Shown: in pieces, positions 1,005-63,459 of the stretch | How the letters are laid out: every line of letters begins with the position of its first letter | Position numbering within the stretch: position 1 is the stretch's first letter | Assembly: GCA_019187185.1 (NCBI GenBank) | Contig: JABAQU010000009.1 | Location: forward strand, 101,521-165,520 | Direction: 5' to 3' | DNA length: 64,000 bases | Source: Steroidobacteraceae bacterium | Lineage (GTDB): Bacteria > Pseudomonadota > Gammaproteobacteria > Steroidobacterales > Steroidobacteraceae | Translations under genes and position numbers: made by a program | The notes under the pieces: model-generated | What the model saw: only the letters and a program-made list of their open reading frames with translations | Database searches by the model: none | Told to the model about the DNA's origin: nothing

Positions 1005-2288
1005 ATGCTTTCTTGCCCCGTTCCCCGATTCCTGCGTGCCGCGTGTCTCGCGTCGGCTCTCGCAGGACTTGCCCTGCCGGCCGTGTGCGCCGCCGCGGCG
1101 CCACCCCCGGAACCGCCCGCGGGACTCACGCTCGCTGAAGCGGTACGCCTCGCGGTCGAGCGCGCACCACAGCTCGATGCGAGCCGTGCCGCCGTCGATG
1201 CCGCGACGCAGGAGTGGCGGCGTGCAGGCCGCCTGCCGGACCCGATGCTCGCGATCGGTGTCGACAACCTGCCGGTGACCGGCACGGATGCCTTCGACCC
1301 CGATGCGGACTCCATGACCGAGAAGACCCTCGGTTTGCGCCAGGACTTGCCCGCGCGTGCACGGCGCATTGCCGAGCGAACGGCAGCATCCCGCGCGGTG
1401 GAACTCGCGCGGTCCGAGGTCGCGGCCGGGCGGCTCGCTGTCGCGCGGTCGGCCGCCAACGCGTGGATCTCGCTCTGGGCCGCACAGCGCGAGATCGAGG
1501 CCTTCGATGCGCTGCGCGACCAGGCGCGCCTTGCAGCGCGGCTCGCAAGGGCACGCGTGGCAGGTGGCGCACCAGTCGTGGATGCGCTCGCGGCCGAAGC
1601 CGCGGTCCTCGACCTCGACGGTGAAGCGGCGCTCGCGGAAGGGTCCGCAGGTGTGGCCCGCGCGGAGTTCTCGCGGTGGATCGGCCCCGGCTCCGGGGCC
1701 ATCGCGCCGTCGGCGCCGGATTTCGGTCGAGCCCCGCGTCCGGTCGACGCCGCCCTCGCGGCCCTCGACGCGCATCCCGCGCTGCGAACGGCGGCCGCAC
1801 GGGTCGCTTCGGCTGCCGCGGCGGTCGATGTGGCGCGCGCCGGGCGCCACCCCGACTGGAACGTGTCTGCGAGCTACGGGCAGCGTGCCGGCTTCAGCGA
1901 CATGCTGATGCTGGAAGTCGGTGTCAGCCTGCCGCTCTTTGCACGCAACAGGCAGGTGCCGGACATCGCGGCGCGCACCGCCGATCAACGCGCGGCACTT
2001 GCCGACGAGGAGGCACTGCGCCGCGAACTGACCGCGCAGGTCGAGGCCACGTACGCACGGTGGGACGCTCTCCGGCGCCTGGTGGCAGCACACGTGCAGG
2101 CTCTCGGCCTGCTGCACGCACGCAGTGCCGCGGCGCTCGCCTCTTATCGCGCGGGCGGCGACCTGCGCGCATGGCTCGACGCGCGCCGCGACGAGGCGGC
2201 GGCGCATCGCACCCATGCCGGCCATCTCGCTGACCTCGGCCGTGCCTGGGTCGACCTGGCCTATCTGTTCGAGGAGCCGATCCCATGA
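1005..2288 (+). CDS. TolC-family outer membrane efflux protein (CusC/CzcC type)
   Basis: 427-residue outer membrane channel of a tripartite heavy-metal RND pump. After a signal peptide ending near AAAA it shows the repeated coiled-coil/beta layout of the family: LTLAEAVRLAVERAPQLDASR near the N terminus, LPDPMLAIGVDNLP, and a second copy of the fold around PALRTAAARVASAAAAVDVAR. The ATG at 1005 follows GGAGG at 996-1000; a GTG at 984 in the same frame is possible but lacks as good a site. The gene overlaps the next by 4 bases (ATGA), a sign of translational coupling with the adaptor and pump. Confidence 0.88.
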   Translation: MLSCPVPRFLRAACLASALAGLALPAVCAAAAPPPEPPAGLTLAEAVRLAVERAPQLDASRAAVDAATQEWRRAGRLPDPMLAIGVDNLPVTGTDAFDPDADSMTEKTLGLRQDLPARARRIAERTAASRAVELARSEVAAGRLAVARSAANAWISLWAAQREIEAFDALRDQARLAARLARARVAGGAPVVDALAAEAAVLDLDGEAALAEGSAGVARAEFSRWIGPGSGAIAPSAPDFGRAPRPVDAALAALDAHPALRTAAARVASAAAAVDVARAGRHPDWNVSASYGQRAGFSDMLMLEVGVSLPLFARNRQVPDIAARTADQRAALADEEALRRELTAQVEATYARWDALRRLVAAHVQALGLLHARSAAALASYRAGGDLRAWLDARRDEAAAHRTHAGHLADLGRAWVDLAYLFEEPIP

Positions 2289-3496
2289 AGACCCGCTCAT
2301 CACATCTCGTGATTCTGGTCGTGCTCGCGCTCGTCGCCGCTGCAGCGGGCCTCGGCTGGTGGAGCCATACGCGTGAGGCGCCCGCACCCGGCGTGGCGGC
2401 CACGGGCGGGCGCAAGGTTCTCTACTGGTACGACCCGATGGTGCCCGACCAGCATTTCGATCACCCCGGCAAGTCGCCGTTCATGGACATGCAGCTGCTG
2501 CCGAAGTATGCGGACGAGGCTGCGGCGGACGGGGTTGCCGTATCGCCCGTGACGCAGGACAGCCTCGGCATCCGGACCGTCGCGGCGGAAATGGGCCGTC
2601 TCGATGGCGAGATCGCCGTGGCCGGCACGATTGCCTGGGACCTGCGGCTCGAGCGGGTCGTCAGTGCACGTACCGATGTGATCGTCGACCGGCTGTACGT
2701 CAAGGCGCCGTTCACGAGGGTGCAGCAAGGCGAGCCGCTGGCCCGGGTGTTCGCGCCGGCGTGGAGCAGTGCGCTGGCCGAAGCGCAGGCGATCAGGGAA
2801 TCCGGCGCGGCGGGTCAGCGCGAACTCGAGGCTGCGGCGGCGGCACGACTGCGCGCACTCGGCGTGCCGGACGGCACGCGCCTCGGTGCCGACGGCCGCA
2901 TCGTGCTGACCGCGCCGGTACCGGGCGTCGTCAGCGAGATCGGCATACGGGAGGGTGCGGCCGCGCCGCCCGAGGCGGTCCTCTTTCGCATCAACGGCAC
3001 GCGCACCGTCTGGCTGCAGGGCGCCATACCGCAGGCCGATGCCGCGGACGTCGCGGCGGGCATGCCGGTCATCGCCGACGTGGAGGGCGTATCGAAGCGT
3101 ATCGACGGACGCGTCGAATCCCTGCTGCCGCAGGTCGATCCCTCGAGCCGCACGCAGGTCGCGCGGGTGGTGCTCGACAATCCCGACGGCCTGCTCGCCG
3201 CAGGACAACTCGCGCGCGTCGGCCTTGCGGCACGGGCGCGCGATGCGCACTGGCTCGTCCCGACCGACGCGGTGATCGGCAGCGGAGGGCGCGCGCACGT
3301 GATCGTGCGCCATGGTGACGCGCACTTCATGCCGGTGGCCGTGCACACGGGCCGCAGCCGTGGTGGCCGGACGGAAATCCTGCACGGGCTCGAGGGCGGC
3401 GAGCAGGTGGTCGCGTCCGGGCAGTTCCTGCTCGATTCGGAAGCGAGCCTGTCGGGCGCGCTCGATCGACTCGGCAGCCACGGGTTGCACCGGTGA
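2285..3496 (+). CDS. RND efflux periplasmic adaptor, CusB-like
   Basis: 403-residue membrane-fusion protein linking inner pump and outer channel. It has an N-terminal membrane anchor (residues ~8-27), then a heavy-metal-binding domain with [20 protein letters not shown] followed by MDMQLLPKY, typical of CusB/CzcB-type adaptors of copper/silver systems. The lipoyl/barrel-sandwich halves follow ([19 protein letters not shown] and [18 protein letters not shown]) and the beta-barrel and membrane-proximal domains end the protein. Starts inside the stop of the channel gene and overlaps the pump gene by 4 bases (GTGA), so the three are one coupled unit. The Met-rich HMBD suggests Cu(I)/Ag(I) rather than Co/Zn/Cd, but this is not decisive. 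Confidence 0.9.
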
Positions 3497-6400
3497 TCGC
3501 CCGCATCATTGCCGCGTCGATCGCGAATCGCGTCGTCGTGCTCGTCGCCGCCCTCGCTGTGGCGGCGTGGGGCATCTGGGCGCTCGTGCGCGCGCCGCTC
3601 GATGCGCTGCCGGATCTGTCCGATACGCAGGTCGTGATACGCACGGAATGGCCGGGGCAGGCGCCGCGCATCGTCGAGGACCAGGTGACGTATCCGCTGT
3701 CGACCACGATGCTGTCCGTGCCCGGCGTCAAGGCCGTGCGCGGGTTTTCGTTCTTCGGCGATTCTTTCGTGTACGTCCTCTTCGATGACGACACCGATCT
3801 TTACTGGGCGCGCTCGCGGGCGCTCGAATACCTGAGCCAGGTGCGCGATCGGCTGCCGGCCGCAGTGACGCCCGCGCTCGGGCCCGATGCCACGGGTGTC
3901 GGCTGGATCTACGAATACGCGCTGGTCGATCGCAGCGGCGCCCACGATCCCGGGCAGTTGCGCGCGCTGCAGGACTGGTTCCTGCGCTACGAGCTCAAGA
4001 CCGTGCCGGACGTCGCCGAGGTCGCGACGGTCGGGGGCATGGTGCAGGGCTGGCAGGTCGTGCCGGATCCGGTGGCGCTCGCGAGCCGCGGCGTCACCGT
4101 GGCGCAGTTGATCGGTGCGATCCGCGCAGCGAACGGCGCAACGGGCGGATCGGTGATCGAGCGGGCGGAGGCCGAGATCATGGTGCGCAGCGAGGGCTAC
4201 CTGCGCACCCGCGAGGATCTCGAACGTGTGCCGGTCGGGCAGGGCGAGGGCGATGTACCGATACTCTTGCGTGACGTCGCGCTCGTGCATCGCGGCCCCG
4301 TGCTGCGCCGGGGCATCGCCGAACTCGACGGCGAGGGCGAGGTCGTCGGCGGCATCGTCGTCCTGCGCTCGGGCAGGAATGCGCTCGATGCGATCGCGGC
4401 GGTGAAGGCGCGTCTCGCGAGCCTTGCGGCGAGTCTGCCCGCGGGCGTCGAAGTCGTGACGGTCTATGACCGGTCGGGGCTGATCCTCGAGGCGGTGCGC
4501 AACCTCGCGCGCAAGCTGGCGGAGGAATTTCTCGTCGTGGCGCTCGTCTGCGCGCTGTTCCTCTGGCATGCGCGCTCCGCGCTCGTCGCGGTCGTCACGC
4601 TGCCGCTCGGCATACTCGCCGCGTTCATCGTGATGCACTTCCAGGGCATCAGCGCGAACCTGCTCTCGCTCGGCGGCATCGCGATCGCGATCGGAGCCAT
4701 GGTCGACGCCGCCGTCGTGATGATCGAGAACGCGCACAAGCATCTCGAGCAGTTCGGGGAGCGCCATGGACGGGCGCCGCGGGACGCCGAACGCCTGGAG
4801 ATCGCACGCATCGCCGCGAGCGAGGTCGGGCCGGCACTGTTCGTGAGCCTGCTCGTAATCACGCTGTCGTTCATCCCGGTGTTCGCGCTCGAGGCGCAGG
4901 AAGGCCGGCTCTTCTCGCCGCTCGCGTACACGAAGACCTGGGCGATGGCCGCTGCCGCCGTGCTCGCCGTGACGCTGATCCCGGTGCTGATCGGGTTGCT
5001 GATCCGCGGCTGCATCCGTCCGGAGCGCGACAATCCGCTGAACCGCGGGCTGATCGCAGCCTACCGGCCGGTGCTCGAGGCGGTGCTGCGCCGCCCGCGC
5101 ACGACCCTCGCGCTCGCCGCGGGCGTGCTGCTCCTGTCCCTCGTGCCGCTGTCGCGCCTCGGCAGCGAGTTCCTGCCGATGATCGATGAGGGCACACTGC
5201 TCTACATGCCGACGGCGCTTCCGGGCCTGTCGGCCGGCAAGGCGGCGGAACTGCTCGGCCAGACCGACCGGATGATTCGCTCCGTGCCGGAAGTGGCGCA
5301 TGTGTTCGGCAAGGCCGGTCGCGCGGAGACCGCGACCGATCCCGCCCCGCTCGAGATGTTCGAGACCACGGTGACGTTCAAGCCCCGCAGCGAGTGGCGT
5401 CCGGGCATGACCCCCGCGAAACTGCGCGAGGAACTCGATGCGGCCGTGCGCGTGCCGGGGCTGACGAACCTCTGGGTGCCGCCGATCCGCAACCGCATCG
5501 ACATGCTCGCCACCGGCATCAAGAGCCCGATCGGGATCAAGGTCACCGGGCCCGACATCGCGGAAGTGGCCCGCCTCGGCGACGCGATCGAGGCGGTCGC
5601 GCGCACAGTGCCCGGCGTGAGCTCGGCGCTCGCCGAACGCGTCGAGGGCGGCCGCTATCTCGACATCGATGTCGATCCGGTGCGTGCCGCACGGTACGGC
5701 CTGTCGCAGGCCGACCTGCAGCAGTTCATCGCGACGGCGATGGGTGGGGAAGCCGTGACGCAGACCATCGAGGGCCGGGAGCGCTACCCGGTGATCGTGC
5801 GCTACCCGCGCGCGGTGCGCGACTCGGTCGAGGCCGTCGGGCGCCTGCCGCTCGTCGCGCCCGGCGGCGCGCAGCTGACGCTCGCGCAGGTCGCGGATGT
5901 TGCCGAGAGCACCGGCCCGCCGATGTTCAGGAGCGACAACGGCCGGCTTGCGAGCTACGTCTATGTCGACGTGTCGGGCCGTGACCTCGGGTCCGTCGTC
6001 GCCGACCTCAAGGTGGCGACGGCCCGCGACGTGCCGCTGCCTCCGGGCTACTCGATCGCGTGGTCGGGCCAGTTCGAATACCTCGCGCGTACCCGCCAGC
6101 GCCTCGTGCTCGTGGTGCCGGTGGTGCTTGCGATCATCTTCGGCCTCATCTGCGTCGTGTTTCGTCGCGTCTCCGAAGCCGCGATCATCATGCTGTCGTT
6201 GCCGTTCGCGCTCGCGGGCGGCCTGTGGCTCGTGTGGCTGCTCGGGCATGCGATATCCGTGGCGTCGCTGATCGGCTTCATCGCACTCGCCGGCGTGGCC
6301 GCCGAGTTCGGCATCATCATGCTGCTCTACCTGCGCCAGGCCTGGGAGCGCGCGCTCGCGAGGCGAGCCGATGCCGGCCTCGCGGAACTCGACGAGGCCA

Positions 6401-6675
6401 TCCGGGAGGGGGCGGTCCAGCGTGTGCGGCCGAAGGCCATGACCGTCGCTGTCATCATTGCCGGGCTCCTGCCGATCCTCTTCGGCGGCGGCGCGGGGTC
6501 GGAGGTGATGCAGCGTATCGCGGCGCCGATGGTGGGCGGCATGCTGAGTGCGCCGCTGCTGTCGATGCTCGTGATCCCGGCGGCGTACCGGCTGCTGCGC
6601 GCACGCGAAATCGCGCGTCGCTCGTCAGCGATAGATGTGGTACAGCATCAGGTACACGACGACCCCCGACACTGA
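3493..6675 (+). CDS. heavy-metal efflux RND pump, CusA/CzcA family
   Basis: 1060-residue inner-membrane proton/cation antiporter, the usual length for HME-RND pumps. Begins with the family signature [18 protein letters not shown] and [13 protein letters not shown]; the TM4 motif [19 protein letters not shown] holds the proton-relay acid. Two large periplasmic loops and twelve membrane spans can be traced. GTG start at 3493 overlaps the adaptor stop. Metal specificity is judged copper/silver-like from the adaptor. The last 51 bases overlap the 3' end of the convergent DUF420 gene (6625-6675), so the two 3' coding ends share DNA, which is unusual but clearly encoded on both strands. Confidence 0.92.
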
Positions 6676-7047
6676 GACGTAGATCCACACCGGCCAGGTC
6701 CACCGGGCCCAGCGGCGGTGGCGCGCTTCCTCGCGGCGCAGGCCGCGCCAGAAGGTCGCGAGCACGAGCGGGATCGCGATGGCGGCCAGCACGACATGGC
6801 TGACGAGCAGTGCGTAGTACATCGGCCGGATCCATCCCTCGCCCCGGAACACGAAGATCGGCGCAGACAGGTGATAGGTGATGTAGCCGGCCAGGAAGAG
6901 CACCGAGACACCGACCGCCGCGATCATCGTCGCGCGATGCGCGGCGACCCGGCGGCGGGCGATGTGCGTGCGGCCCACCACCAGCAACACGCTGGTCGCC
7001 GCATTGAGGGCCGCGTTGATGTGCGGCAGGTGCGCGGTGATGTCCAT
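6625..7047 (-). CDS. DUF420 membrane protein, probable heme-copper oxidase assembly factor (CtaM-like)
   Basis: 140-residue protein with four membrane spans, typical of DUF420. Family features seen: [22 protein letters not shown] at the start, conserved His residues in spans ([28 protein letters not shown]) and [19 protein letters not shown] near the end. DUF420 proteins such as CtaM of Bacillus and Staphylococcus are needed to mature heme-copper oxidases. The ATG at 7047 is chosen over longer in-frame starts because it begins the conserved family N terminus. It diverges from the oxidase-like cluster across a 133-base region holding an FNR-type box, so both sides may be co-regulated. Its 3' end overlaps the cusA-like gene. 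Confidence 0.85.
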
Positions 7048-7101: not shown

Positions 7102-7115
7102 TTGATCAAGGTCAA
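7102..7115. promoter_or_regulatory. FNR/ANR/DNR-type binding box
   Basis: The sequence TTGATCAAGGTCAA matches the Crp/FNR-family consensus TTGAT-N4-ATCAA in 9 of 10 fixed positions; the GTCAA right half is a common variant in DNR/NO-responsive sites. Its centre (7108.5) lies about 40 bases before a start point implied by a weak -10 TAGGAA at 7136-7141, the usual class II activator position. It sits between the DUF420 gene and the seven-gene cluster and suggests control by low oxygen or nitric oxide. Which regulator binds cannot be told from the site. Confidence 0.65.
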
Positions 7116-7180: not shown

Positions 7181-7336
7181 ATGAGTGACCAGCCGAACGA
7201 CGACGACAAGATCCCGCTGATGCAGCGCCTGCTCGACAATCCGTTCCTGCTGCTGTTCCTCGGTGTGCTGATCCCGATGGTGCTCTACATCCTGTGGGGC
7301 GTGATCGACATCCTCACCATTCCTGCCGCGAAGTAA
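7181..7336 (+). CDS. 51-residue single-span membrane protein, first gene of oxidase-like cluster
   Basis: Small ORF with an acidic N terminus (MSDQPNDDDKIPLMQRLLDN) and one membrane helix (about residues 21-46), ending IPAAK. A purine-rich GGGGGG site stands 5-10 bases before the ATG. It lies 20 bases before the CuA subunit gene and is the first gene after the FNR-type box. In ba3-type oxidases a tiny single-helix subunit (IIa) accompanies subunits I and II, and I infer that this is an analogous or homologous accessory subunit. No family signature is recognised beyond the membrane helix, so the role rests on position, size and topology. Confidence 0.7.
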   Translation: MSDQPNDDDKIPLMQRLLDNPFLLLFLGVLIPMVLYILWGVIDILTIPAAK

Positions 7337-7356
7337 TCTCCTTCGGGGACAAAAAA

Positions 7357-7896
7357 ATGACTGCAATTCTGCCGCCTGCCGAACGACTGTGGTGGAAGCA
7401 TCCGCTGGATCGGGTGGAAGGCACCTGGATCGCGATCGCTTTCGTCTGGTGCATGGTCATGTTCTTCATGATGATCTACTGGCACATCAACGGCCGCCAG
7501 AACCTCTCCACCGAGACCTACAAGGCGTCGCCGGAGGCTTACCAGGCGAGGGCCGAGGCCTGGGCCAGCCAGTACACCGTGCGTGTCGACGAGACGACCG
7601 GCAATCCGGTCGTGGCGCCACCCGCCGGGGGCGATGCCTATCTCATCGCCCGCCTGTGGAGCTTCTGGCCGACGCTGGAGCTCGAGAAGGACAAGACCTA
7701 CCGGCTGCACCTGTACTCGATGGACTATAACCACGGCTTCTCGCTGCAGCCGTCCAACATCAACATCCAGGTCGTTCCGGGCTACGAGCACGTCGTGACG
7801 GTGACGCCGAACCAGAGCGGCACCTATTCGGTGGTCTGCAACGAATTCTGCGGCATCGGCCATCACACGATGGTCGGCACCCTCTACGTGAAGTGA
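7357..7896 (+). CDS. CuA-containing heme-copper oxidase subunit II (ba3-like)
   Basis: 179-residue protein with one N-terminal membrane helix (about residues 22-42, WIAIAFVWCMVMFFMMIYW) and a periplasmic cupredoxin domain. The complete binuclear CuA site is visible: His126 in DYNHGFS, then C161-x3-C165-x3-H169-x2-M172 (CNEFCGIGHHTM). CuA accepts electrons from a periplasmic donor and passes them to the low-spin heme of subunit I. The single helix and short length resemble B-family oxidases, not the two-helix A-family form. The ATG at 7357 follows a purine stretch; a longer in-frame start would overlap the small upstream gene. Translated just before subunit I (14-base gap). Confidence 0.92.
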   Translation: MTAILPPAERLWWKHPLDRVEGTWIAIAFVWCMVMFFMMIYWHINGRQNLSTETYKASPEAYQARAEAWASQYTVRVDETTGNPVVAPPAGGDAYLIARLWSFWPTLELEKDKTYRLHLYSMDYNHGFSLQPSNINIQVVPGYEHVVTVTPNQSGTYSVVCNEFCGIGHHTMVGTLYVK

Positions 7897-7910
7897 CGGA
7901 GATCGCGACG

Positions 7911-9611
7911 ATGGCAACCACGACAAGCTACCGTACCTGTTCGATCTCCGGGCTGCAGTTCGAGAGCCGGGCGGAGAAACTCATCGCCGCCAACGCCGTG
8001 GCCGGCGTGGTGTTCCTGCTGATCGGCGGCCTGCTGGCGCTCGGTGTGGCGCTCACGCGCTGGCCGTCCGTGCACTGGCTGCAGGCCGACAAGTTCTACC
8101 AGGTGCTGACGGCGCACGGCCTGAACATGCTGATCTTCTGGATGATCTTCTTCGAGATCGCCCTGCTGTATTTCTGTGCCTCGACACTGCTGCGCTGCCG
8201 GATCGCCACGCCGAAAATCGCGTGGCTCGCCTTTGCGCTGATGCTGGTCGGCGCGGCGATGAACAATGTCGCCGTGTACCAGGGCGCCTCGAGCGTCATG
8301 ATGACGTCGTACGTGCCGATGCCGGCGACGCCGTCCTTCTATCTCGGCCTCGTGCTGTTTGCCGTCGGCGCGCTGATCGGCTGCTTCGTGTTCTTCGGGA
8401 CCCTGGTGGTCGCCAAGCGCGACAAGACCTACGAAGGATCCATCCCGCTCGTCACTTTCGGCGCGGTCACCGCGGCCATCATTGCCGTATTCACGATCGC
8501 ATCCGGCGCCATCATCCTCGTGCCGACGTGGCTGTGGTCGATCGGCGTCGTCAAGGAAGTGGATCCGCTGATTTACCGGCTCGTCTGGTGGGGCCTCGGC
8601 CATTCCTCGCAGCAGATCAACGTCGCCGCGCAGATCTCGGTGTGGTACCTCGTCGCCGCAGTCGCGTTCGGCGCGAAGCCGATGTCCGAGCGGGTGAGCC
8701 GCGGGGCATTCCTCCTCTACATCCTCTTCCTGCAACTCGCGAGCGCCCACCACCTGCTGGCCGACCCGGGTGTCTCGACCAACTGGAAGGTGCTCAACAC
8801 GAGCTACTTCATGTACTTCGCGGTGCTCGCGTCGATGATCCACGGGCTCACCGTGCCGGGCGCGATGGAAGTGGCGCAGCGCCAGAAGGGCTTCACCCGC
8901 GGGCTGTTCGAGTGGCTGCGGCGCGCCCCGTGGGGCAACCCGACCTTCTCGGGCGTGTTCATCTCGATCATCGGCTTCGGCTTCCTCGGCGGCATCTCGG
9001 GCGTGATGATGGGCACTGAGCAGCTGAACATGATCATCCACAACACGATCTACGTGCCGGGACACTTCCATGCGACGGTCGTGGTCGGCACCACGCTGAC
9101 CTTCATGGCGCTGACCTACTACCTGCTGCCGGTGCTGTTCAAGCGGGAGGTCATCAATCCGGGCCTCGCGAAGCTGCAGCCCTACCTGTTCGGCCTCGCG
9201 ATGTATGTCTTCTGCCTCGTGATGATGGGCGCGGGGACGCTCGGCGTGCCGCGGCGGCATTGGGACCTCGGCTTCGGCGGCATGCCCGGTGCTTATGAGT
9301 GGCCCGGTGCGGCGTACCTGATGATGGGACTCGTCGGCATCTCGGGTGTCGTCGCGATCATCGGCGGGGCGCTCTACATCTACCTCACCGTCGGCACGCT
9401 CCTCTGGGGCAGGAAAGTCGCGGTGGCGGGGGCGAGTGCGCAGCCGACACCGATTCCGCCGACGGCGCCGACACTCGCGGCGCAGAGTTATGGCTCACTG
9501 GGATTTGCCGCCCCCGGCACCTTCGTGCTGGCGATGGTGTTCCTCGTGTCGTTCGTCCTGTACTACTTCGTGAACTGGAAATATCTGTCGACATTGTGGG
9601 GCATGAGCTGA
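7911..9611 (+). CDS. heme-copper oxidase superfamily subunit I, B-family-like, active-site Tyr replaced by Gln
   Basis: 566-residue integral membrane catalytic subunit. Metal ligands are in place: H69 (LTAHGLNML, low-spin heme), H231 (WGLGHSSQQ), H280-H281 (ASAHHLLADPG) for CuB, and H385/H387 (VPGHFHATV) for the two hemes. The HHLLADPG and NTIYVPGHFH contexts are those of ba3/B-family oxidases. However the residue four after H231, which in oxidases is the Tyr cross-linked to a CuB ligand, is Gln235 (codon CAG at 8613-8615). Loss of this Tyr is typical of nitric-oxide-reducing members of the superfamily, so the product may reduce NO and not, or not mainly, O2. It is paired with a genuine CuA subunit, as in the CuA-type NO reductase of Bacillus azotoformans. 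Oxidase activity cannot be excluded. Confidence 0.88.
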   Translation: MATTTSYRTCSISGLQFESRAEKLIAANAVAGVVFLLIGGLLALGVALTRWPSVHWLQADKFYQVLTAHGLNMLIFWMIFFEIALLYFCASTLLRCRIATPKIAWLAFALMLVGAAMNNVAVYQGASSVMMTSYVPMPATPSFYLGLVLFAVGALIGCFVFFGTLVVAKRDKTYEGSIPLVTFGAVTAAIIAVFTIASGAIILVPTWLWSIGVVKEVDPLIYRLVWWGLGHSSQQINVAAQISVWYLVAAVAFGAKPMSERVSRGAFLLYILFLQLASAHHLLADPGVSTNWKVLNTSYFMYFAVLASMIHGLTVPGAMEVAQRQKGFTRGLFEWLRRAPWGNPTFSGVFISIIGFGFLGGISGVMMGTEQLNMIIHNTIYVPGHFHATVVVGTTLTFMALTYYLLPVLFKREVINPGLAKLQPYLFGLAMYVFCLVMMGAGTLGVPRRHWDLGFGGMPGAYEWPGAAYLMMGLVGISGVVAIIGGALYIYLTVGTLLWGRKVAVAGASAQPTPIPPTAPTLAAQSYGSLGFAAPGTFVLAMVFLVSFVLYYFVNWKYLSTLWGMS

Positions 9612-9613
9612 CC

Positions 9614-10441
9614 ATGCGATGGCGGTTGCACGCAATCGCCATCCTGCTGACGGTGGCTGCGGTGGGACGGGCGGAGCCGCAGGCGACGTACCAGGCGGCC
9701 GTGCTCGATCCGCAGGTGGTGCTCGACACGAGCCGCGCGGCGGTCGGCAACGTCCCGGGCGACTATCCCATGCGCGATCGCCGCGAGCGCGAGGTGCGCC
9801 TCGCGGACTTCCGGGGCAAGCCGCTGCTCGTGAACTTCGTCTACACGGGGTGTTTCGAGGTGTGCCCGAACAGCACGCTCGCGCTGCGCAATGCCGTGAA
9901 CGCGATGCGCGCCCGCTTCGGCACCGATCAGTTCCGCGTGGTCAGCATCGGGTTCGACCAGCCGACCGACTCGCCGGCGGCGATGCGCAGCTACGCCGCG
10001 CAACGACGCATCGACGATGCGAACTGGGAGTTCCTGAGCCCACGGCGCGAGGACGTGGCGATGCTCGCGCGCGACTTCGGTTTCACGTTCATCGCGACGC
10101 CGCGCGGGTTCGACCACACGCTGCAGGTCAGCGTCGTCGACGCGGAAGGCCGGATCCGGCGGCAGGTGGTCGGCGACACGTTCACCGCGGCATCGCTCGG
10201 TGAGCCGCTCAGGCAATTGATTGCCGGCCGGCTCCTGAAGGACACGACAACCCTCACCGACCTGCTCGATCGCGTGCGCATCCTCTGTTCGGTCTACGAC
10301 CCGGAAACCGGCCAGTACCGCGTGAGTTACGCGCTCTACATCGAGATTGCCGGCGGTCTCACGTTCATCGTCGCGATGCTCTGGTTTGCCATGGCGGAGT
10401 GGCGCCGCGCGCGCGTGGCGCGCCGGCGCGCCGCGCACTGA
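9614..10441 (+). CDS. SCO1/SenC-family copper chaperone with C-terminal membrane anchor
   Basis: 275-residue periplasmic thioredoxin-fold protein. A signal sequence is followed by the SCO motif C80-x3-C84 in YTGCFEVCPN and the copper-ligand His168 in FDHTLQ. SCO proteins deliver copper to the CuA site and keep its cysteines reduced. After the SCO domain there is an extra ~60-residue tail with RVRILCSVYDPETGQYRVSY and a hydrophobic helix (GGLTFIVAMLWFAMAEW) ending in basic residues, so the protein is held by its C terminus. It starts two bases after subunit I and is followed 7 bases later by the next gene, consistent with one transcript. Confidence 0.88.
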   Translation: MRWRLHAIAILLTVAAVGRAEPQATYQAAVLDPQVVLDTSRAAVGNVPGDYPMRDRREREVRLADFRGKPLLVNFVYTGCFEVCPNSTLALRNAVNAMRARFGTDQFRVVSIGFDQPTDSPAAMRSYAAQRRIDDANWEFLSPRREDVAMLARDFGFTFIATPRGFDHTLQVSVVDAEGRIRRQVVGDTFTAASLGEPLRQLIAGRLLKDTTTLTDLLDRVRILCSVYDPETGQYRVSYALYIEIAGGLTFIVAMLWFAMAEWRRARVARRRAAH

Positions 10442-10448
10442 GCCGACG

Positions 10449-10976
10449 ATGCCGAGGCCTCCCGCCAGCCCCAAACCGCGAGCAGCGGCCGTGATCGGCC
10501 AGGTCGTGCTGTACGCGGCGCTGGCCGGCGCCATCGCGGTCTTTTCGCGCTGGCCGGTCTACCACCAGCTCGAGCCCGACCAGTCGTTGATCAAGCTGAG
10601 CATCGTGCACGAGACGCAGCACGTGACGGCCTGCCAGCGACGCACACCCGAGGAACTCGCGAAGTTGCCGCCGAACATGCGGGCGCCGATGAACTGCCCG
10701 CGCGAGCGCGCGCCGCTCACGGCCGAGGTGGACGTCGACGGCCATCCCGTGATTCGCCAGATCGCCCAGCCCTCCGGCCTCGCGCGCGACGGCCGGGCGC
10801 TGCTCAGTCATCGGCTGGTCACGACGGCGGGCAGCCACGAGATCGCGGTCCGCGTGCGCGACAGCGCGCGTACCACGGGCTTCGACTACCAGCGCGAGGA
10901 GAGAGTCACTTTGCAGCCGGCACAGATCCTGGTCATCGACCTGCAGCCCGAGCGGCACGAGATCACGTTCCGATGA
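10449..10976 (+). CDS. membrane-anchored protein of unknown function in oxidase-like cluster
   Basis: 175 residues. One N-terminal membrane helix (about residues 15-35, VIGQVVLYAALAGAIAVFS) then a soluble, probably periplasmic domain of ~135 residues. The domain has two cysteines about 25 residues apart (VTACQRR and MNCPRER) and a predicted beta-rich second half (HEIAVRVRDSARTTGFDYQ). I do not recognise the family. Position between SCO and the second heme-copper-like subunit, with 7-base and 4-base (ATGA) junctions on either side, argues that it is a structural or assembly component of the complex; the Cys pair could bind copper or form a disulfide. Confidence 0.7.
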   Translation: MPRPPASPKPRAAAVIGQVVLYAALAGAIAVFSRWPVYHQLEPDQSLIKLSIVHETQHVTACQRRTPEELAKLPPNMRAPMNCPRERAPLTAEVDVDGHPVIRQIAQPSGLARDGRALLSHRLVTTAGSHEIAVRVRDSARTTGFDYQREERVTLQPAQILVIDLQPERHEITFR

Positions 10977-12388
10977 GCACGCGGTCGGATGCCGTACTCG
11001 CCGTCGACGCGGTTGGCGCCCCGGACCTCGCGAAGGTGATTCCGCCGGCGGGGCTCGGCCGCCTGACCCGCGGCTGGCTGTGGCTCGGCCTCTCGTCGCT
11101 CGCCGGCTCGGGCGTTTTCGCGGTCCTGCTGGTGCTGTCGCGGACACCGCAGGTCAACGAGTGGCTGCCGGTCGCAGAGTTCTTTCGCGTTGCGTTGATC
11201 GTGCACGTGAATCTCTCGGTGCTCGTGTGGTTCGTCGCGCTCGCCGGCATCCTCTGGTCGATGACCGGCTCGACGCGCGCACCGGGCCTTGCGTGGCTGG
11301 CCCTTGGTCTTTGCGCAGTGGGCACGGTGATGATGGCGCTGGCGCCGTTCACGGGCTCCGGCCAGCCGATTGCCGCGAACTACGTGCCGGTGCTCGACGG
11401 CCCCGTGTTCCTCACCGGCCTCGCCGTGTTCGGGCTGGGCGGTGCGGCGCTCGTGCTGCGCGGCCTCATGGCGGTGCAGCCCATCGGCCAGGCCCAGACC
11501 GAGGACGGCGCGATGCGCTTCGGACTCCTCGCGAGCCTGGTCGCCGCCGCCGTCGCGGTATTCGCATTCGCTGCGTCGTGGTGGCTCGTGCCACGTTCGC
11601 TCGATGCGCGGACGTACTACGAAATCCTCTTCTGGGGCGGCGGACACGCGCTGCAGTTCGTGTGGACGCTGCTGATGCTCGTCGGCTGGCTGTGGCTCGC
11701 GCGCGCCTGCGGTGCGCGCCTGTCGCTGAGTCCGCGGCTCACGGTGCTGCTGCTCGCGCTGGCGCTCGCGAGCGTGTTCGTCACGCCCTATGCCTATGTG
11801 GCTGCCGATGTCACGTCGGTCGAGTTTCGCCTGCTCAACACCTGGGCGATGCGGCTCGGCGGGGGCATCGCGATCGTGCCGATCGCGCTCGCGGTCGCAG
11901 CGGGGCTGCTGGGCGCCGGCGCGGCGCGGCGCGCCACCGTACCGCCGCTGCGCGCGGCGCTCGTCGCATCGATCGTGCTCTTCGGGGCAGGCGGCGTGAT
12001 CGGCGCCTTCATCGGCGGCAGCGACGTGCGCATACCCGCGCACTATCACGGCTGCATCGTCGGCGTGACCCTCGCGCTGATGGGCATGGTCTATCTCCTG
12101 CTGCCGAGGCTCGGCTACGGCGCGCCGTCGAGCCGTCTCGCGTTCTGGCAGCCGGTGCTGTACGGCGCGGGCCAGCTGCTGCACATCATCGGTCTCGTAT
12201 GGTCGGGCGGCTACGGCGTGCAGCGCAAGGTGGCGGGCGCCGAGCAGGTGTTGCGCAGCACGGGCGAGGTCGCGGGGATGGGCCTGATGGGACTCGGGGG
12301 CCTTGTCGCGATCATCGGCGGCCTGCTGTTCGTCGTGGTCGTCGTGCAGGCGATGCGTGCGCGACCGCAGGTCGGGGCCCAACGATGA
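10973..12388 (+). CDS. heme-copper oxidase-like subunit lacking the CuB histidine pair
   Basis: 471-residue protein with about twelve membrane spans and the outline of a heme-copper subunit I. Retained: H78 in TM2 (LIVHVNLSV), H225 in TM6 (WGGGHALQF) and H357/H359 in TM10 (IPAHYHGCI), enough for a low-spin and a second heme. Missing: where the CuB His-His pair should stand, before the aligned segment ending in RLLNT, there is TPYAYVAAD (Y273-A274). The Tyr position after H225 is F229. The protein may thus be a heme-only electron carrier or carry an altered metal site. It is often labelled simply cbb3-type subunit I; that label would hide the missing ligands. Coupled by overlaps to both neighbours. 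Confidence 0.8.
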   Translation: MSTRSDAVLAVDAVGAPDLAKVIPPAGLGRLTRGWLWLGLSSLAGSGVFAVLLVLSRTPQVNEWLPVAEFFRVALIVHVNLSVLVWFVALAGILWSMTGSTRAPGLAWLALGLCAVGTVMMALAPFTGSGQPIAANYVPVLDGPVFLTGLAVFGLGGAALVLRGLMAVQPIGQAQTEDGAMRFGLLASLVAAAVAVFAFAASWWLVPRSLDARTYYEILFWGGGHALQFVWTLLMLVGWLWLARACGARLSLSPRLTVLLLALALASVFVTPYAYVAADVTSVEFRLLNTWAMRLGGGIAIVPIALAVAAGLLGAGAARRATVPPLRAALVASIVLFGAGGVIGAFIGGSDVRIPAHYHGCIVGVTLALMGMVYLLLPRLGYGAPSSRLAFWQPVLYGAGQLLHIIGLVWSGGYGVQRKVAGAEQVLRSTGEVAGMGLMGLGGLVAIIGGLLFVVVVVQAMRARPQVGAQR

Positions 12389-14301
12389 TCAGGGCTCTGC
12401 AGGGCCTGATCCGCTGGTTGTTCATGCATGCGGAGGCGGTGTTCAACCGGGCCTTCGGCGACCGGCTGAACCCGCTGTACTACCTGGGCGCGATCACTTT
12501 CTTCCTGTTCTGGGTCGTCGCCATCACGGGCCTGTACCTGTACGCGTTTTTCGATACGGCGGTCACCGGCGCCTACGACTCGGTCGAGTCACTGACCCAT
12601 GCGCAGCCGTATGTCGGTGGCATCATGCGCAGCGTGCACCGCTATGCCTCCGACGGCATGGTGGTCCTCATGTTCGTGCACATGCTGCGGTACTTCGCAT
12701 TCGACCGCCTGCGCGGCTTTCGCTGGTTCTCGTGGGTCACGGGTGTCGTCCTCATCTGGTTCGTGTACATCAGCGGAGTCGGCGGCTACATGCTGCCCTG
12801 GGACCGGCTCGCGCAGTTCGTGACGGTTGCGAGTTTCGAGTGGCTCGACTGGCTGCCCGGCATCGACGGCAGCCTGATCCGCAATGTCATCTATCCGGAG
12901 AGCGTCAACGACCGTTTCTTCTCGCTGCTCGCCTTCATGCACATCGGCGCGCCGCTCCTGACGCTGCTGCTGATGTGGGTACACGTCCAGCGCGTGCCGA
13001 AGGCCGATACCCAGCCGCCGCGACCGATCGCCATCGGCGTCCTCGCGACGCTCGTGCTGCTCGCGCTCGTGCAACCGGTACTGAGCCAGGGCGGCCCGGC
13101 CGACCTAGCCGTCGCCGTGAATGCCGTTGCGCTCGACTGGTTCTACCTCGCGCTCTTCCCGCTGGTCTACGCCTGGCCGTTGCAGCACACCTGGATGCTC
13201 GTCATCGGTGTCACGCTGCTGCTCGCGATGCTGCCCTGGCTGCGCCTGCGGCGCGGCGGGCGCAAACCCGAGGTGCACATCGAAATGCATCCGGGGCCGC
13301 GGCGCGTGACGGCGCTGCCGGGTGAAACGCTCCTCGAGGCGGGCCTGCGTGCGGGGCTCGCGCTGCCGTACGAATGCCGCAACGGCGGCTGCCAGGTGTG
13401 CGTGTGCACGGTCATGCAGGGCGAGGTCGATCACGGCGCGTACCAGCCCGACGCCCTGACGGATGCGATGCGCGCGAACGGCAAGGCGCTGATGTGCTGC
13501 GCGACGGCGCTCGGCGACGTCGCGATCGAGATCGACGTCGAGTCGATCGACCCGGGCGGCATGGCACCGGTGCTCGAGCGGGTGGCGCGCATCGAGCAGA
13601 TGCGGCCCCTCAGCGACGACGTGATGGAGATGAAGCTGTCGCTGCCCGGCGGTGAGCGGATGGATTTCGGCGCGGGTCAGTACGTCAACGTGGTGCTGGA
13701 AGATGGCGAGCGACGCGCCTACTCGTTCGCGAACGCGCCGCACGACAACGAATTCATAGAGCTGCAGGTCAAGCTGATTCCGGGCGGCCGCTTCTCGCCA
13801 CGCGTGTTCACGTCGCTCAAGGTCGGCGACACGCTCCAGATCGAAGGCCCATTCGGCCGCTTCACGCTGCGACCGGGCGTACGGCCGATCCTGCTCGTCG
13901 CGACGTCCACCGGTTTTGCGCCGATCAAGAGCATCGTCGAGGACGCACTGCACCGTGGCGTGCGCCGCCCGATGCGCCTGTACTGGGGCGTACGCCATCG
14001 CAGCGACCTTTACCAGCTCGATGTGTGCGCTCGGTGGGAGCGCGAACACGCAGACTTCAAGTTCATTCCCGTGCTGTCACGGCCGGAGGGCAGCGGCTGG
14101 ACCGGTCGCACCGGCCACGTGGATACCGCCATCCTCGAGGATTTCCCGAACCTGCAGGGCTACGAGGTGTACGTCTGCGGCTCGGTGCAACTCGTCCGCG
14201 GCGCGGTGCCCGCATTCCTGTCGCGTGGCCTCAGCGAGAACGCCTGCTTCACCGATACCTTCACGCCCGCGACCGCGGTGACCGCACAGCAGCCGTCCTG
14301 A
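12385..14301 (+). CDS. fusion: diheme cytochrome b + [2Fe-2S] ferredoxin + FAD/NAD(P)H reductase
   Basis: 638-residue three-module protein. Residues ~1-205 are a cytochrome b of bc1/b6 type with four membrane spans and two His pairs spaced x13 (H85/H99 and H186/H200), plus GGYMLPWDR. Two more helices follow to ~290. Residues ~295-385 are a plant-type ferredoxin: C331-x4-C336-x2-C339 (CRNGGCQVC) and C371/C372. Residues ~390-638 are a ferredoxin-NADP reductase-like unit: FAD motif RAYSFANAP, nucleotide motif VATSTGFAPIKS, and VYVCGSVQLV. It should carry electrons from NAD(P)H through FAD and Fe-S into membrane hemes b. The ATG overlaps the preceding stop (ATGA at 12385-12388). The module order is unusual and no standard name fits. 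Confidence 0.85.
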   Translation: MIRALQGLIRWLFMHAEAVFNRAFGDRLNPLYYLGAITFFLFWVVAITGLYLYAFFDTAVTGAYDSVESLTHAQPYVGGIMRSVHRYASDGMVVLMFVHMLRYFAFDRLRGFRWFSWVTGVVLIWFVYISGVGGYMLPWDRLAQFVTVASFEWLDWLPGIDGSLIRNVIYPESVNDRFFSLLAFMHIGAPLLTLLLMWVHVQRVPKADTQPPRPIAIGVLATLVLLALVQPVLSQGGPADLAVAVNAVALDWFYLALFPLVYAWPLQHTWMLVIGVTLLLAMLPWLRLRRGGRKPEVHIEMHPGPRRVTALPGETLLEAGLRAGLALPYECRNGGCQVCVCTVMQGEVDHGAYQPDALTDAMRANGKALMCCATALGDVAIEIDVESIDPGGMAPVLERVARIEQMRPLSDDVMEMKLSLPGGERMDFGAGQYVNVVLEDGERRAYSFANAPHDNEFIELQVKLIPGGRFSPRVFTSLKVGDTLQIEGPFGRFTLRPGVRPILLVATSTGFAPIKSIVEDALHRGVRRPMRLYWGVRHRSDLYQLDVCARWEREHADFKFIPVLSRPEGSGWTGRTGHVDTAILEDFPNLQGYEVYVCGSVQLVRGAVPAFLSRGLSENACFTDTFTPATAVTAQQPS

Positions 14302-14325: not shown

Positions 14326-15300
14326 TCAGGGGCAGGGCTCGCCGGCCGCGGGAGCGCGTGCGCTGATTTCACCGGCCGTGGCATCGACGGCCGCCGCGAG
14401 CGCAGTCCCGCGTGCATGCTCGCGCGCCACGGCGATCTCGGCGAGCGCCGCCTCGCGACAACCGCGCAGTGACAGCAACTCTGCATAGTTGTTGCGTGCG
14501 GCGACATCGTTCGGGGCGCGCAGCAGCAGTTCGCGCAAGTCCTCCTCGGCGCCCGCGCGATCGCCCTCGGCGAGCCGCATGTTCGCGGCGCCGAGCCGCA
14601 GCAGCGGTGCATCGGGCCAGCGCGTGATGCCCGCGTCATAGGCGCGCAAGGCTGCGCCCTTGTCGATGTGCTCGAAGTCGGCGACTGCAGCCGCGAAGCC
14701 GGACGCGGTGGCTGCTTGCGGCACCTCTCCCGGGCGCAGCACGACAAATCCCCAGCGATGCGCGCGCCCCCAGGCGCCCTTGAAGCGCCACAGCGACATG
14801 CGGGCGCGCTGCGTTCTGCCCGACCGCAGCAGCATGCGCCCCGCGTCGCGTTCGTAGCCGACCGCGACCGCGTAGTGCCAGATCGGCCAGGCATCGACGC
14901 CGAGATTCAGCAGCACGAGTACGGGGCGCCCTTCGGCGAGCAATCGTACCAGTGTCTCGAACCGGGGCTCGATGACATAGGGAATGCGATGCCGTTGCCG
15001 CGCTGCCGCCAGCATTTCGATCTGCAGGCTGCCTTTGCGCGCCGGAATATAGACGTCGCCGACGAGTTCCGCGGGCGTCACGTGGGCACCGCTCGCGCCG
15101 AGGAGGGTGGCCAATGCGGCCGGGCCGCACTGATGGTCATCCTGTGGAAAAAACGGGGTTGCCGACAGATCGACCTGCGGAGGAGTGTCGGCGGGCCACG
15201 GCGCAGTCGCGCCGGGCCCGCCGGATCTTCCGGGGAGCGTGCCGCAGCCACTCGCGAGCAGCGCAACGGCGAGCACCGCCGTGCGACCGATACGCATCAT
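14326..15300 (-). CDS. PA2778-family C39-like cysteine peptidase lipoprotein with TPR tail
   Basis: 324 residues. A lipobox LASGC places the lipidated Cys near residue 19. The C39-like papain fold shows DDHQCGPAALATLL with nucleophile Cys58 and the His of IWHYAVAVGY about 90 residues on. From ~residue 210 there are tetratricopeptide-type helices (DAPLLRLGAANMRLAEGD, ARNNYAELLSLRG). PA2778/PA2779 pairs are common in Gammaproteobacteria; the peptidase is thought to act in the periplasm but its substrate is not established. The PA2779 partner is directly upstream with a 15-base gap, so they form an operon. Convergent with the cytochrome b fusion gene. Confidence 0.85.
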   Translation of the reverse strand: MMRIGRTAVLAVALLASGCGTLPGRSGGPGATAPWPADTPPQVDLSATPFFPQDDHQCGPAALATLLGASGAHVTPAELVGDVYIPARKGSLQIEMLAAARQRHRIPYVIEPRFETLVRLLAEGRPVLVLLNLGVDAWPIWHYAVAVGYERDAGRMLLRSGRTQRARMSLWRFKGAWGRAHRWGFVVLRPGEVPQAATASGFAAAVADFEHIDKGAALRAYDAGITRWPDAPLLRLGAANMRLAEGDRAGAEEDLRELLLRAPNDVAARNNYAELLSLRGCREAALAEIAVAREHARGTALAAAVDATAGEISARAPAAGEPCP

Positions 15301-62565: not shown

Positions 62566-63459
62566 TCATGCATCATGTGGGCGCCACAAAATTAACTGCT
62601 TTCGTTTCCCGGATCTGTTTGACGGTTTGTTTTCGGCGTGTATTGGCCTGTTTCCTGAGTCCTCCGCAGCCATTTTCCCCGCAAATTCTGCCGGCGTTAG
62701 CTCTTTGAGAGCCTGGTGAGGCCAACTCTCGTTGTATTCGACCCGCCAAGCTCCGATCTTCGCTTTGGCCTCGTCAATCGTCTCGATCCAGTGCACGTTC
62801 AAGCACTCGTCGCGGAACTTGCCGTTGAAGCTCTCGATGTACGCGTTCTGTGTGCGCTCGCCGGCCTCGATCAGCCGTAAGGCCACATCGCGCTGCCACG
62901 CCCACTGATCCAGTGCCTGGCCGGTGAACTCAGGACCCTGATCGGTGCGGCTGACCTTCGGCAGACCACGGAACTGGCCGACGCGATCCAGGACTCGCGT
63001 GACGTACGCCCCGCCAATCGCGTGGTCTACGACGATGTCGAGCGACTCCTTCGTGAAGTCATCGACAATGGTCAGATATTTGAGCCGCCAGCCGTACTCC
63101 AGGCTGTCACTGACAAAATCTATCGACCAGACCTGGTTGGGCGCCGTGGGTCTCTGCAGCGGCCGACGCTCTACGGCCACGCCTTCGCGGCGCTTGCGGC
63201 GCCGAACCTGCAGCTTCTCCAGCCGATACAGCCGATGCACGCGCTTCACGTTGACCTCAGCCCCTTCCCGGCGCAGCAGGGCGTGAATGCGCCGGTAGCC
63301 AAACCGGCGCCGCTGCGCAGCCAGTTCCACGATGCGACATCGCAGCTGCCCACCGTCAGCTTCCCGGCCGGGCGCGTAGTGCAACACCGTGCGCGAGATC
63401 GCCATCAGCTGACAGGCCCGCCGCTCCGAGATCTTCGTCTTCGCCCGCATGGCCATCAC
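62566..63459 (-). CDS. IS3-family transposase OrfB (DDE integrase)
   Basis: 297 residues from the GTG at 63459. RRRFGYRRIHALLRREG is the usual N-terminal helix region, and the rve/DDE catalytic core follows: VWSIDFVSDSLEYG (first Asp), SRTDQGPEFTGQAL (second Asp), YIESFNGKFRDECL (Glu). It is normally produced as an OrfAB fusion by -1 frameshifting; the -1 frame runs open from the OrfA end through TVSPQARREAVMAMRAK. The C-terminal end RKQLILWRPHDA may read beyond the natural element. Confidence 0.9.
   Translation of the reverse strand: MMAMRAKTKISERRACQLMAISRTVLHYAPGREADGGQLRCRIVELAAQRRRFGYRRIHALLRREGAEVNVKRVHRLYRLEKLQVRRRKRREGVAVERRPLQRPTAPNQVWSIDFVSDSLEYGWRLKYLTIVDDFTKESLDIVVDHAIGGAYVTRVLDRVGQFRGLPKVSRTDQGPEFTGQALDQWAWQRDVALRLIEAGERTQNAYIESFNGKFRDECLNVHWIETIDEAKAKIGAWRVEYNESWPHQALKELTPAEFAGKMAAEDSGNRPIHAENKPSNRSGKRKQLILWRPHDA

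What the first reader, a model, noticed from the sequence alone, without database searches (positions are those of the whole stretch)
7181..14301. Candidate undescribed NAD(P)H-linked heme-copper respiratory complex
Seven tightly packed genes encode a one-helix peptide, a CuA subunit, a B-family-like catalytic subunit, SCO, an anchored unknown protein, a second heme-copper-like subunit lacking CuB ligands, and a cytochrome b-ferredoxin-NAD(P)H reductase fusion. Three junctions are 2-7 bases and two are ATGA overlaps. Known oxidases and NO reductases take electrons from cytochrome c or quinol; here a flavoprotein in the same transcript could feed the membrane hemes straight from NAD(P)H. The combination is what is new, whatever each part does.
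Basis: partly seen in the sequence, partly recalled or inferred. Interest (0 to 1): 0.93.

Follow-up and report, generated by a model that had tools for sequence, protein, structure and literature searches.

The report
NAD(P)H-wired nitric oxide reductase cluster
This seven-gene bacterial cluster encodes a copper-and-heme-type enzyme that likely turns toxic nitric oxide into the greenhouse gas nitrous oxide and is predicted to draw its electrons from the cell's NAD(P)H through a reductase encoded in the same operon, a wiring I did not find described for this enzyme family.

Summary
The seven genes are real; only one junction statement was wrong. The catalytic pair is a CuA-bearing, B-family heme-copper enzyme whose active-site tyrosine is glutamine in 96 of 96 distinct relatives. 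Genomes carrying it nearly always carry cytochrome d1 genes (31 of 34, against 43 of 335 without it); a NirS-type gene lies within 20 kb in 11 of 34; 21 of 34 lack a detectable c/qNOR. The window's only perfect FNR/DNR-type box lies 65 nt upstream. It is therefore most likely an alternative NO reductase rather than an oxidase. All 67 loci (of 80) holding the catalytic gene also encode a bc1-type cytochrome b fused to a cytosolic redox module. Three module types occur: [4Fe-4S]2-FlpD, [2Fe-2S]-FAD-NAD(P)H reductase (this window) and flavodoxin-FAD-NAD(P)H reductase (one genome). This interchange supports electron input from cytosolic NAD(P)H, which is untested. The second heme-copper-like protein, lacking two CuB ligands, is strongly associated with the reductase, but 18 of 46 genomes have it alone, often beside heme A/O synthase genes. 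An obligate relay role is therefore doubtful. The catalytic core is a known kind (sNOR/eNOR-like); the reductase wiring and the CuB-less paralogue are new.

The parts
6625..7047 (-). Divergent DUF420 (CtaM-like) gene, 140 aa; family required for aa3/caa3 oxidase assembly in Firmicutes
   Evidence: PF04238 at 4.9e-42; found at this place in 7 of the 80 loci; CtaM role from passages of PMC9145763. May share the regulatory box.
7102..7115 (.). FNR/DNR-type box TTGATCAAGGTCAA, 65 nt upstream of orf1
   Evidence: Only match to TTGAYNNNNRTCAA in 64 kb (0.11 expected, 11 of 100 shuffles had at least one). The same perfect box lies within 600 nt upstream of CuA in 23 of 79 loci against about 2.2 expected (one genome is in twice, as L042 and L168). 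DNR consensus CTTGATnnnnATCAAG from passages of PMC1274295.
7181..7336 (+). orf1: 51-aa single-helix peptide, resembling in size and place the small cbaC peptide of bNOR/sNOR clusters
   Evidence: One TM segment; homologues upstream of CuA in 64 of 80 loci; a 46-aa membrane peptide upstream of cbaBA is described in passages of PMC3475470.
7357..7896 (+). CuA subunit II
   Evidence: PF00116 at 3.2e-5; ba3 subunit II best solved relative; H126, C161, E163, C165, H169, M172 in 93 of 93 distinct relatives.
7911..9611 (+). Catalytic subunit I (SU1): B-family heme-copper protein with Gln in place of the active-site Tyr
   Evidence: Best solved relatives: T. thermophilus ba3. H69, H231, Q234, Q235, N237, H280, H281, H377, H385 in 96 of 96 and H387 in 95 of 96 distinct relatives. 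Q235 aligns with ba3 Tyr237 (alignment; residue number recalled).
9614..10441 (+). SCO/SenC copper chaperone with a C-terminal helix
   Evidence: PF02630 at 1.3e-14; C80, C84 and H168 conserved.
10449..10976 (+). orfU: one N-terminal helix plus a predicted periplasmic Ig-like beta-sandwich; conserved Cys62, Met77 and Cys83
   Evidence: AF2 mean pLDDT 92.6; no PDB match at E<=0.001; Cys62 and Cys83 in 85 of 85, Met77 in 83 of 85 distinct relatives; fused to the cytochrome b-FlpD protein in L174.
10973..12388 (+). HCO2: CuB-less heme-copper oxidase paralogue
12385..14301 (+). Cytochrome b (bc1/b6-type) - [2Fe-2S] ferredoxin - FAD - NAD(P)H reductase fusion
   Evidence: PF00033, PF00111, PF00970, PF00175; H85, H99, H186, H200 and C331, C336, C339, C371 in 71 of 71 distinct relatives; positive-inside loops put the C-terminal modules in the cytosol if the 243-261 segment does not cross.

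Best explanation
The operon encodes the CuA subunit and the tyrosine-less catalytic subunit of a B-family heme-copper enzyme, which is likely a nitric oxide reductase, together with a cytochrome b fused to a [2Fe-2S]-FAD-NAD(P)H reductase that would feed it electrons from cytosolic NAD(P)H. Shown by sequence: a full CuA site; heme and CuB ligands in subunit I with Gln where oxidases have the cross-linked Tyr; a bc1-type cytochrome b with four invariant heme-ligand-type His; an intact 2Fe-2S/FAD/NAD(P) reductase; association with cytochrome d1 genes; a DNR/FNR-type box upstream. Inferred: NAD(P)H reduces FAD, then 2Fe-2S, then the cytosolic-side and periplasmic-side b hemes; from there electrons pass, directly or through a small carrier, to CuA, the low-spin heme and the heme-CuB site, where 2 NO become N2O. 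The cytochrome b module is interchangeable: most relatives have a [4Fe-4S]2-FlpD version, often in addition; this window has only the NAD(P)H version. SCO would load CuA, orfU is probably a periplasmic partner of the cytochrome b. HCO2 is inferred to be an accessory heme protein (heme handling, assembly or NO binding) rather than an obligate link in the electron chain. NO reduction itself: about 0.75. NAD(P)H as the physiological donor: about 0.45.
For: Catalytic type: the active-site Tyr is Gln in 96 of 96 distinct relatives, also in Thermus and Thermomicrobium relatives; oxygen reductases keep Tyr and NO reductases replace it (Table A4 of PMC8756737, passage; PMC3475470, passage). NO context: cytochrome d1 genes at E<=1e-20 in 31 of 34 carriers against 43 of 335 others (Fisher p 2e-21); NirS-type score class (470 bits or more, a cut I set at the gap in the list) in 22 of 34 against 19 of 335; within 20 kb of SU1 on the same contig in 11 of 34 (coordinates). 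21 of 34 carriers have no c/qNOR at E<=1e-3, 14 of them with a NirS-type gene, and several of those also have nosZ. Hemerythrin, Crp/Fnr regulators and, in Thermus, Rrf2 and DUF542 genes lie beside it. Upstream box. Electron input: 67 of 67 SU1 loci among the 80 hold a cytochrome b fusion; 57 hold both FlpD and FNR forms, 5 FlpD only, 5 FNR only. The own genome has no FlpD form elsewhere, so here the FNR form stands alone. One genome carries the same cytochrome b fused to flavodoxin, FAD and NAD(P) domains three genes from HCO2 (L173). FlpD-cytochrome b and orfU are one protein in L174.
Against: No biochemistry. 13 of 34 carriers, this genome among them, do have a NorB-type gene, and this genome also has a second tyrosine-less B-type enzyme (Asn type), so SU1 is not its only candidate NOR. 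Its own cytochrome d1 gene lies on another contig. Three carriers (G120, G228, G111) have no cytochrome d1 gene. Thermus and Thermomicrobium relatives have no cytochrome b beside them, so the enzyme can work without it, presumably with cytochrome c. The full FNR fusion is rare in the class sample (G000, G082 and, split over two contigs, G342 of 369), and in G082 it lies 1.9 Mb from the cluster. The cytochrome b keeps a PEWY-like Asp-Trp motif, which hints at a quinone site. B-family NO reductase and oxidase functions are disputed even for sNOR (PMC6967387).
Confidence: 0.5

Rival explanations
1. SU1-CuA is an alternative NO reductase fed in the ordinary way, by cytochrome c through CuA or by quinol, and the cytochrome b-FNR protein does something else (NAD(P)H:quinone reductase, redox poise, stress).
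For: CuA is intact. Thermus and Thermomicrobium relatives have no cytochrome b beside them. The cytochrome b keeps a PEWY-like Asp-Trp motif and the LPWD segment in the FNR forms (the comparison with bc1 is recalled). bNOR takes both menaquinol and cytochrome c (PMC3475470, passages).
Against: 67 of 67 SU1 loci of the HCO2-chosen set and 12 of 15 class-sample loci have a complete cytochrome b fusion; of the other three, one has a cut copy, one ends at the contig end, one has it 14 kb away. Three different cytosolic modules were attached to the same cytochrome b, and orfU is fused to one of them.
Confidence: 0.28
2. A high-affinity oxygen reductase, as was argued for the Nitrosomonas sNOR, with NO reduction at most a side reaction.
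For: sNOR of N. europaea rises under O2 limitation and has been proposed to be a terminal oxidase (PMC6967387, passages). FNR-type boxes also serve microaerobic genes. B-family fold. CtaB and CtaA genes lie nearby in many loci.
Against: Gln instead of the cross-linked Tyr in 96 of 96; association with cytochrome d1 genes and absence of c/qNOR in 21 of 34 carriers.
Confidence: 0.12
3. The cytochrome b runs the other way: it oxidises quinol at a bc1-like periplasmic site, sends one electron to CuA and the NOR, and the other across the membrane to the cytosolic ferredoxin/FAD or FlpD module (bifurcation-like).
For: bc1-type cytochrome b with invariant Asp-Trp in the ef-loop position and, in the FNR forms, the LPWD segment; cytosolic low-potential-type modules attached. 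NO is a very strong oxidant (recalled).
Against: No Rieske protein or cytochrome c1 among the cluster genes scanned; transfer to NAD(P)+ would run against the membrane potential; flavodoxin-FAD-NAD(P)H reductases normally consume NADPH (recalled).
Confidence: 0.06

Closest known systems
sNOR (norSY-senC of ammonia oxidisers) and bNOR/qCuANOR (cbaCBA-senC of Bacillus)
   Same: CuA subunit II, B-family subunit I without the catalytic Tyr, SCO/SenC in the cluster, and in Bacillus a small peptide in front; ctaB beside the B. bataviensis cluster (PMC3475470, passages; PMC6967387, passages).
   Different: Tabulated active-site residue is Asn, here Gln at the Tyr position; no cytochrome b-reductase fusion, orfU or HCO2 appears in the passages I saw.
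eNOR (Rhodothermus, Chloroflexota, archaea)
   Same: Gln as the active-site substitution and a cupredoxin subunit II (Table A4 and text passages of PMC8756737).
   Different: An Anaerolinea thermolimosa neighbourhood table in the same paper lists subunit III, COX4 and SURF1 genes (passage); none is among the window cluster genes. Clade not tested: the reference paper (Murali 2024) is not held.
NADPH oxidases (NOX/DUOX) and similar transmembrane reductases
   Same: Cytosolic FAD/NAD(P)H domain drives electrons outward over two membrane b hemes (recalled).
   Different: Here the membrane part is a bc1/b6-type cytochrome b (PF00033), a 2Fe-2S domain is inserted, and the partner would be a NO reductase.
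Cytochrome b of bc1/b6f complexes
   Same: PF00033, four heme-ligand-type His, invariant Asp-Trp in the PEWY position (comparison recalled).
   Different: No Rieske or c1 gene in the cluster; fused to three different cytosolic reductase modules.
Heme-copper oxidase subunit I (for HCO2)
   Same: Predicted full HCO fold with heme ligands.
   Different: No TM VII His-His pair for CuB; no NCBIfam match at E<=0.1 and no PDB sequence match at E<=1.

Membership tests
B-family oxygen reductase (ba3) | B-family subunit I with heme and CuB ligands | tested here: met
   ba3 is the best solved relative; all six His present.
B-family oxygen reductase (ba3) | Active-site Tyr cross-linked to the TM VI His | tested here: not met
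   Gln235 in 96 of 96 distinct relatives.
sNOR | CuA subunit II and SCO/SenC gene in the cluster | tested here: met
sNOR | Asn as active-site residue (Table A4 of PMC8756737) | tested here: not met
   Gln at the Tyr position; an invariant Asn237 lies two residues on, so the table could mean another residue.
sNOR | Falls in the sNOR clade of the reference phylogeny | not testable with these tools
   Murali et al. 2024 is not held; no named Nitrosomonas NorY came up.
eNOR | Gln as active-site residue and cupredoxin subunit II | tested here: met
eNOR | Falls in the eNOR clade of the reference phylogeny | not testable with these tools
   No reference sequences at hand.
cNOR/qNOR | Glu in place of the active-site Tyr | tested here: not met
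   Gln235 in 96 of 96; the own genome has a separate NorB-type gene.
NO reductase by function | Reduces NO to N2O | not testable with these tools
   Context only.
NAD(P)H:heme transmembrane reductase | FAD, NAD(P) and 2Fe-2S domains with conserved cluster Cys, on a two-heme cytochrome b | tested here: met
   (domains and ligands only).
Cytochrome bc1/b6f complex | Rieske and cytochrome c1/f partners | tested here: not met
   No such domain among the cluster genes.
Heme-copper oxidase catalytic subunit (HCO2) | Three CuB His ligands | tested here: not met
   TM VI His kept, TM VII pair absent in 107 of 107 distinct relatives.

The most novel reading that the evidence does not exclude
A heme-copper NO reductase wired straight to cytosolic NAD(P)H: a transmembrane cytochrome b carries electrons from an NAD(P)H reductase to the CuA-NO reductase, bypassing quinone pool, bc1 complex and cytochrome c, with swappable cytosolic input modules (FlpD, FNR, flavodoxin-reductase) in different denitrifiers.
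Probability: 0.4. Interest if true: 0.9.

Novelty: new variant of a known kind. Interest (0 to 1): 0.7.

Why it matters
NO reduction is the step that makes N2O in denitrification, and known heme-copper NO reductases take electrons from cytochrome c or quinol. A version fed by NAD(P)H would tie N2O production to the cell's soluble reductant pool, would run without cytochrome c or quinol, and would be missed by surveys that annotate these genes as 'cbb3-type cytochrome c oxidase subunit I' (the NCBI name seen). It also gives NirS-bearing genomes without c/qNOR a candidate for the missing step (14 of 34 carriers). The CuB-less paralogue beside heme A/O synthase genes is a separate, testable unknown.

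Tried and rejected
Ordinary oxidase: set aside because of the Gln substitution and the denitrification context, but kept as a rival. HCO2 as an obligate electron relay: doubted because in 18 of 46 genomes it occurs without SU1. In 8 of those 18 it lies next to a heme A or heme O synthase gene; in two it lies beside a sigma-70-family gene (for one of them) and in three beside cytochrome-c-assembly or thioredoxin-like genes (for one of them). G061 had only a marginal HCO2-like hit (8e-17) and was counted as lacking it. orfU fold search: no PDB match at E<=0.001. AMO search to find nitrifiers among the carriers rang nowhere, controls included, so it shows nothing. HCO2 has no match among plasmids. 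NCBIfam gave no name for the NirS-type proteins of L175 and L176; Pfam later gave cytochrome c plus d1 domains. The pHG1 stretch fetched for a NorB query held none; a NorB-type protein of the own genome was used instead. A NirK search, planned, was not run. No NorB search was run on genomes without SU1, so the 21 of 34 has no control. Simple promoter/terminator scan: nothing above chance.

Literature: ten searches gave listings. Passages only were read in PMC6967387, PMC11388526, PMC3475470, PMC8756737, PMC9270275, PMC12569097, PMC11707229, PMC6094997, PMC11046850, PMC1274295 and PMC9145763. None of these passages describes a cytochrome b-FNR or FlpD fusion with a CuA-NOR, but subscription papers, and Murali et al. 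2024 in particular, were out of reach.

Counting notes: the 80 loci are the best 80 of 230 by HCO2. Conserved-residue rows (100, 98, 94, 73, 93, 93, 90) contained repeats; one search gives distinct sequences without the window. L042 and L168 are the same contig. The class sample of 369 genomes includes the window's own.


Full report
What is there. The seven genes stand as described; the junctions are 20, 14, 2, 7, -4 and -4 nt. A divergent DUF420/CtaM-like gene (6625-7047) and, further upstream, a CusAB-like metal efflux pair (2285-6675) precede them. The only perfect TTGAYNNNNRTCAA box in the 64 kb lies at 7102-7115, 65 nt before orf1. One such box is expected in about one of nine shuffled windows, so the place, not the presence, carries weight. 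In 23 of 79 relatives' loci with enough upstream sequence the same perfect box lies within 600 nt upstream of CuA, against about 2.2 expected. Passages of PMC1274295 give CTTGATnnnnATCAAG as the DNR consensus for nir, nor and nos genes; the window site is C-TTGATCAAGGTCAA-G, one base off.

Catalytic pair. Subunit I matches COX1 (1.5e-64), and its closest solved relatives are Thermus ba3 enzymes. In the HMMER alignment the ba3 TM VI segment GHPIVY pairs with GHSSQQ. The heme and CuB histidines and Gln235 are invariant in 96 of 96 distinct relatives, except one Lys at position 387. The GH(S/G)(S/A)QQ(I/V)N motif reaches Defluviimonas, Thermus and Thermomicrobium plasmid relatives at 50-61% identity. 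The CuA ligands are invariant in 93 of 93. By the tabulation of PMC8756737 (Table A4, passage) oxygen reductases have Tyr here, sNOR and CuANOR Asn, eNOR Gln. The pair is therefore an alternative CuA-type NO reductase by sequence criteria; which clade is open.

Genome context. A class-wide sample of 369 genomes was searched with SU1, HCO2, the cytochrome b-FNR protein and cytochrome d1. SU1 relatives at 62% identity or more are in 34. Cytochrome d1 proteins (E<=1e-20) are in 31 of these 34 and in 43 of the other 335 (Fisher p 2e-21). The top score class (470 bits or more, the cut placed at a gap I saw in the list; two members checked have cytochrome c plus d1 domains) is in 22 of 34 against 19 of 335. 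It lies within 20 kb of SU1 on the same contig in 11 of 34. With a NorB-type query from the own genome, 13 of 34 carriers have a c/qNOR and 21 do not; 14 of those 21 have the NirS-type gene. No NorB search was made on non-carriers. Full-length or split nosZ is present in some of these. Against: the own genome has a NorB-type gene, a further Asn-type B-family gene and no nosZ, and its d1 gene is on another contig.

Cytochrome b module. In the 80 HCO2 loci (best 80 of 230) the cytochrome b is found fused to Fer2-FAD-NAD in 70 and to two 4Fe-4S plus FlpD in 70, both in 62. Of the 67 loci with SU1, all have at least one: 57 both, 5 only FlpD, 5 only FNR (L001, L003, L013, L041, L049). In those five and in the window SCO and orfU are adjacent, where others have the FlpD protein. 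The own genome has no FlpD form. Of 15 class-sample loci with SU1 that I fetched, 12 have the FlpD form complete, one a cut cytochrome b, and two none in the locus (one at a contig end, one with it 14 kb away). L173 has, near HCO2, the same cytochrome b fused to Flavodoxin_1, FAD_binding_1 and NAD_binding_1; L174 has the FlpD form fused to an orfU domain. Heme-ligand-type His 85, 99, 186 and 200 are in all 157 cytochrome b rows, and an Asp-Trp pair sits where bc1 cytochrome b has PEWY (Asp 157 of 157, Trp 156 of 157; the PEWY comparison is from memory). Loop charges fit six crossings with the reductase modules in the cytosol if the 243-261 segment is a re-entrant or surface helix.

FNR fusion and independence. 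In the class sample the full-length FNR fusion is found in G000 and G082, and split over two contigs in G342 (the listing is capped but sorted by E-value). A four-genome order sample added G369. All four genomes carry SU1; in G082 the fusion is 1.9 Mb away. So the fusion is rare at class level, but where sampled here it is not found without SU1.

Mechanism. The best-supported reading is NAD(P)H to FAD to 2Fe-2S to the two b hemes to CuA to the heme-CuB site, reducing NO. The NO part rests on residue, context and regulation; the NAD(P)H part rests on domain content and on the interchange of three cytosolic modules on one cytochrome b. Transfer between cytochrome b and CuA, the direction of flow, and any complex are inferred. 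Energy: electrons would move outward, so the step would not conserve energy by itself (inference).

Novelty. Known: CuA-type alternative NORs with SCO genes. New as far as my ten searches of open papers and the passages read go: the attached cytochrome b with swappable cytosolic reductases, orfU and the CuB-less paralogue. Murali et al. 2024, the paper most likely to mention gene neighbourhoods, was not held.

Noticed in passing
Own genome G000:C13:16162-17484 (L085): A further B-type heme-copper gene with Asn at the Tyr position (FGHMYIN), beside a CuA-like hit; with SU1 and a NorB-type gene this genome has three NOR-like catalytic genes, besides aa3 and cbb3 oxidases.
   Followed up: partly
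L148, L149, L150, L151, L153, L157, L140, L145: HCO2 family members beside heme A synthase (CtaA) or heme O synthase (CtaB) genes, several next to aa3-type operons, in genomes without SU1: a possible unrecognised oxidase assembly or heme-handling protein with an oxidase fold.
   Followed up: partly
L173:2672-5212 (-): The cytochrome b fused to flavodoxin, FAD and NAD(P) domains (846 aa) near HCO2 and SU1; the only one seen.
   Followed up: partly
L174:6887-8935 (+): Cytochrome b-[4Fe-4S]2-FlpD fused to an orfU domain in one 682-aa protein.
   Followed up: partly
L010:4925-5824 and similar: Heme O synthase (UbiA family) between subunit I and SCO in 64 of 80 loci; absent from the window cluster. 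It suggests an o- or a-type heme in the enzyme.
   Followed up: partly
L088 (Thermus thermophilus plasmid pHB5018d): A 51% identical subunit I with CuA and a small peptide, followed by Rrf2, DUF542 and YwiC-like genes, a NO-stress-like setting without cytochrome b.
   Followed up: no
window 2285-6675: CusB/CusA-like metal efflux genes just upstream.
   Followed up: no
window 14326-15300 (-): Peptidase C39-like domain plus TPR protein, downstream and convergent.
   Followed up: no
window 62566-63459 (-): IS-type integrase (rve domain) in a stretch of lower G+C at the window's end.
   Followed up: no
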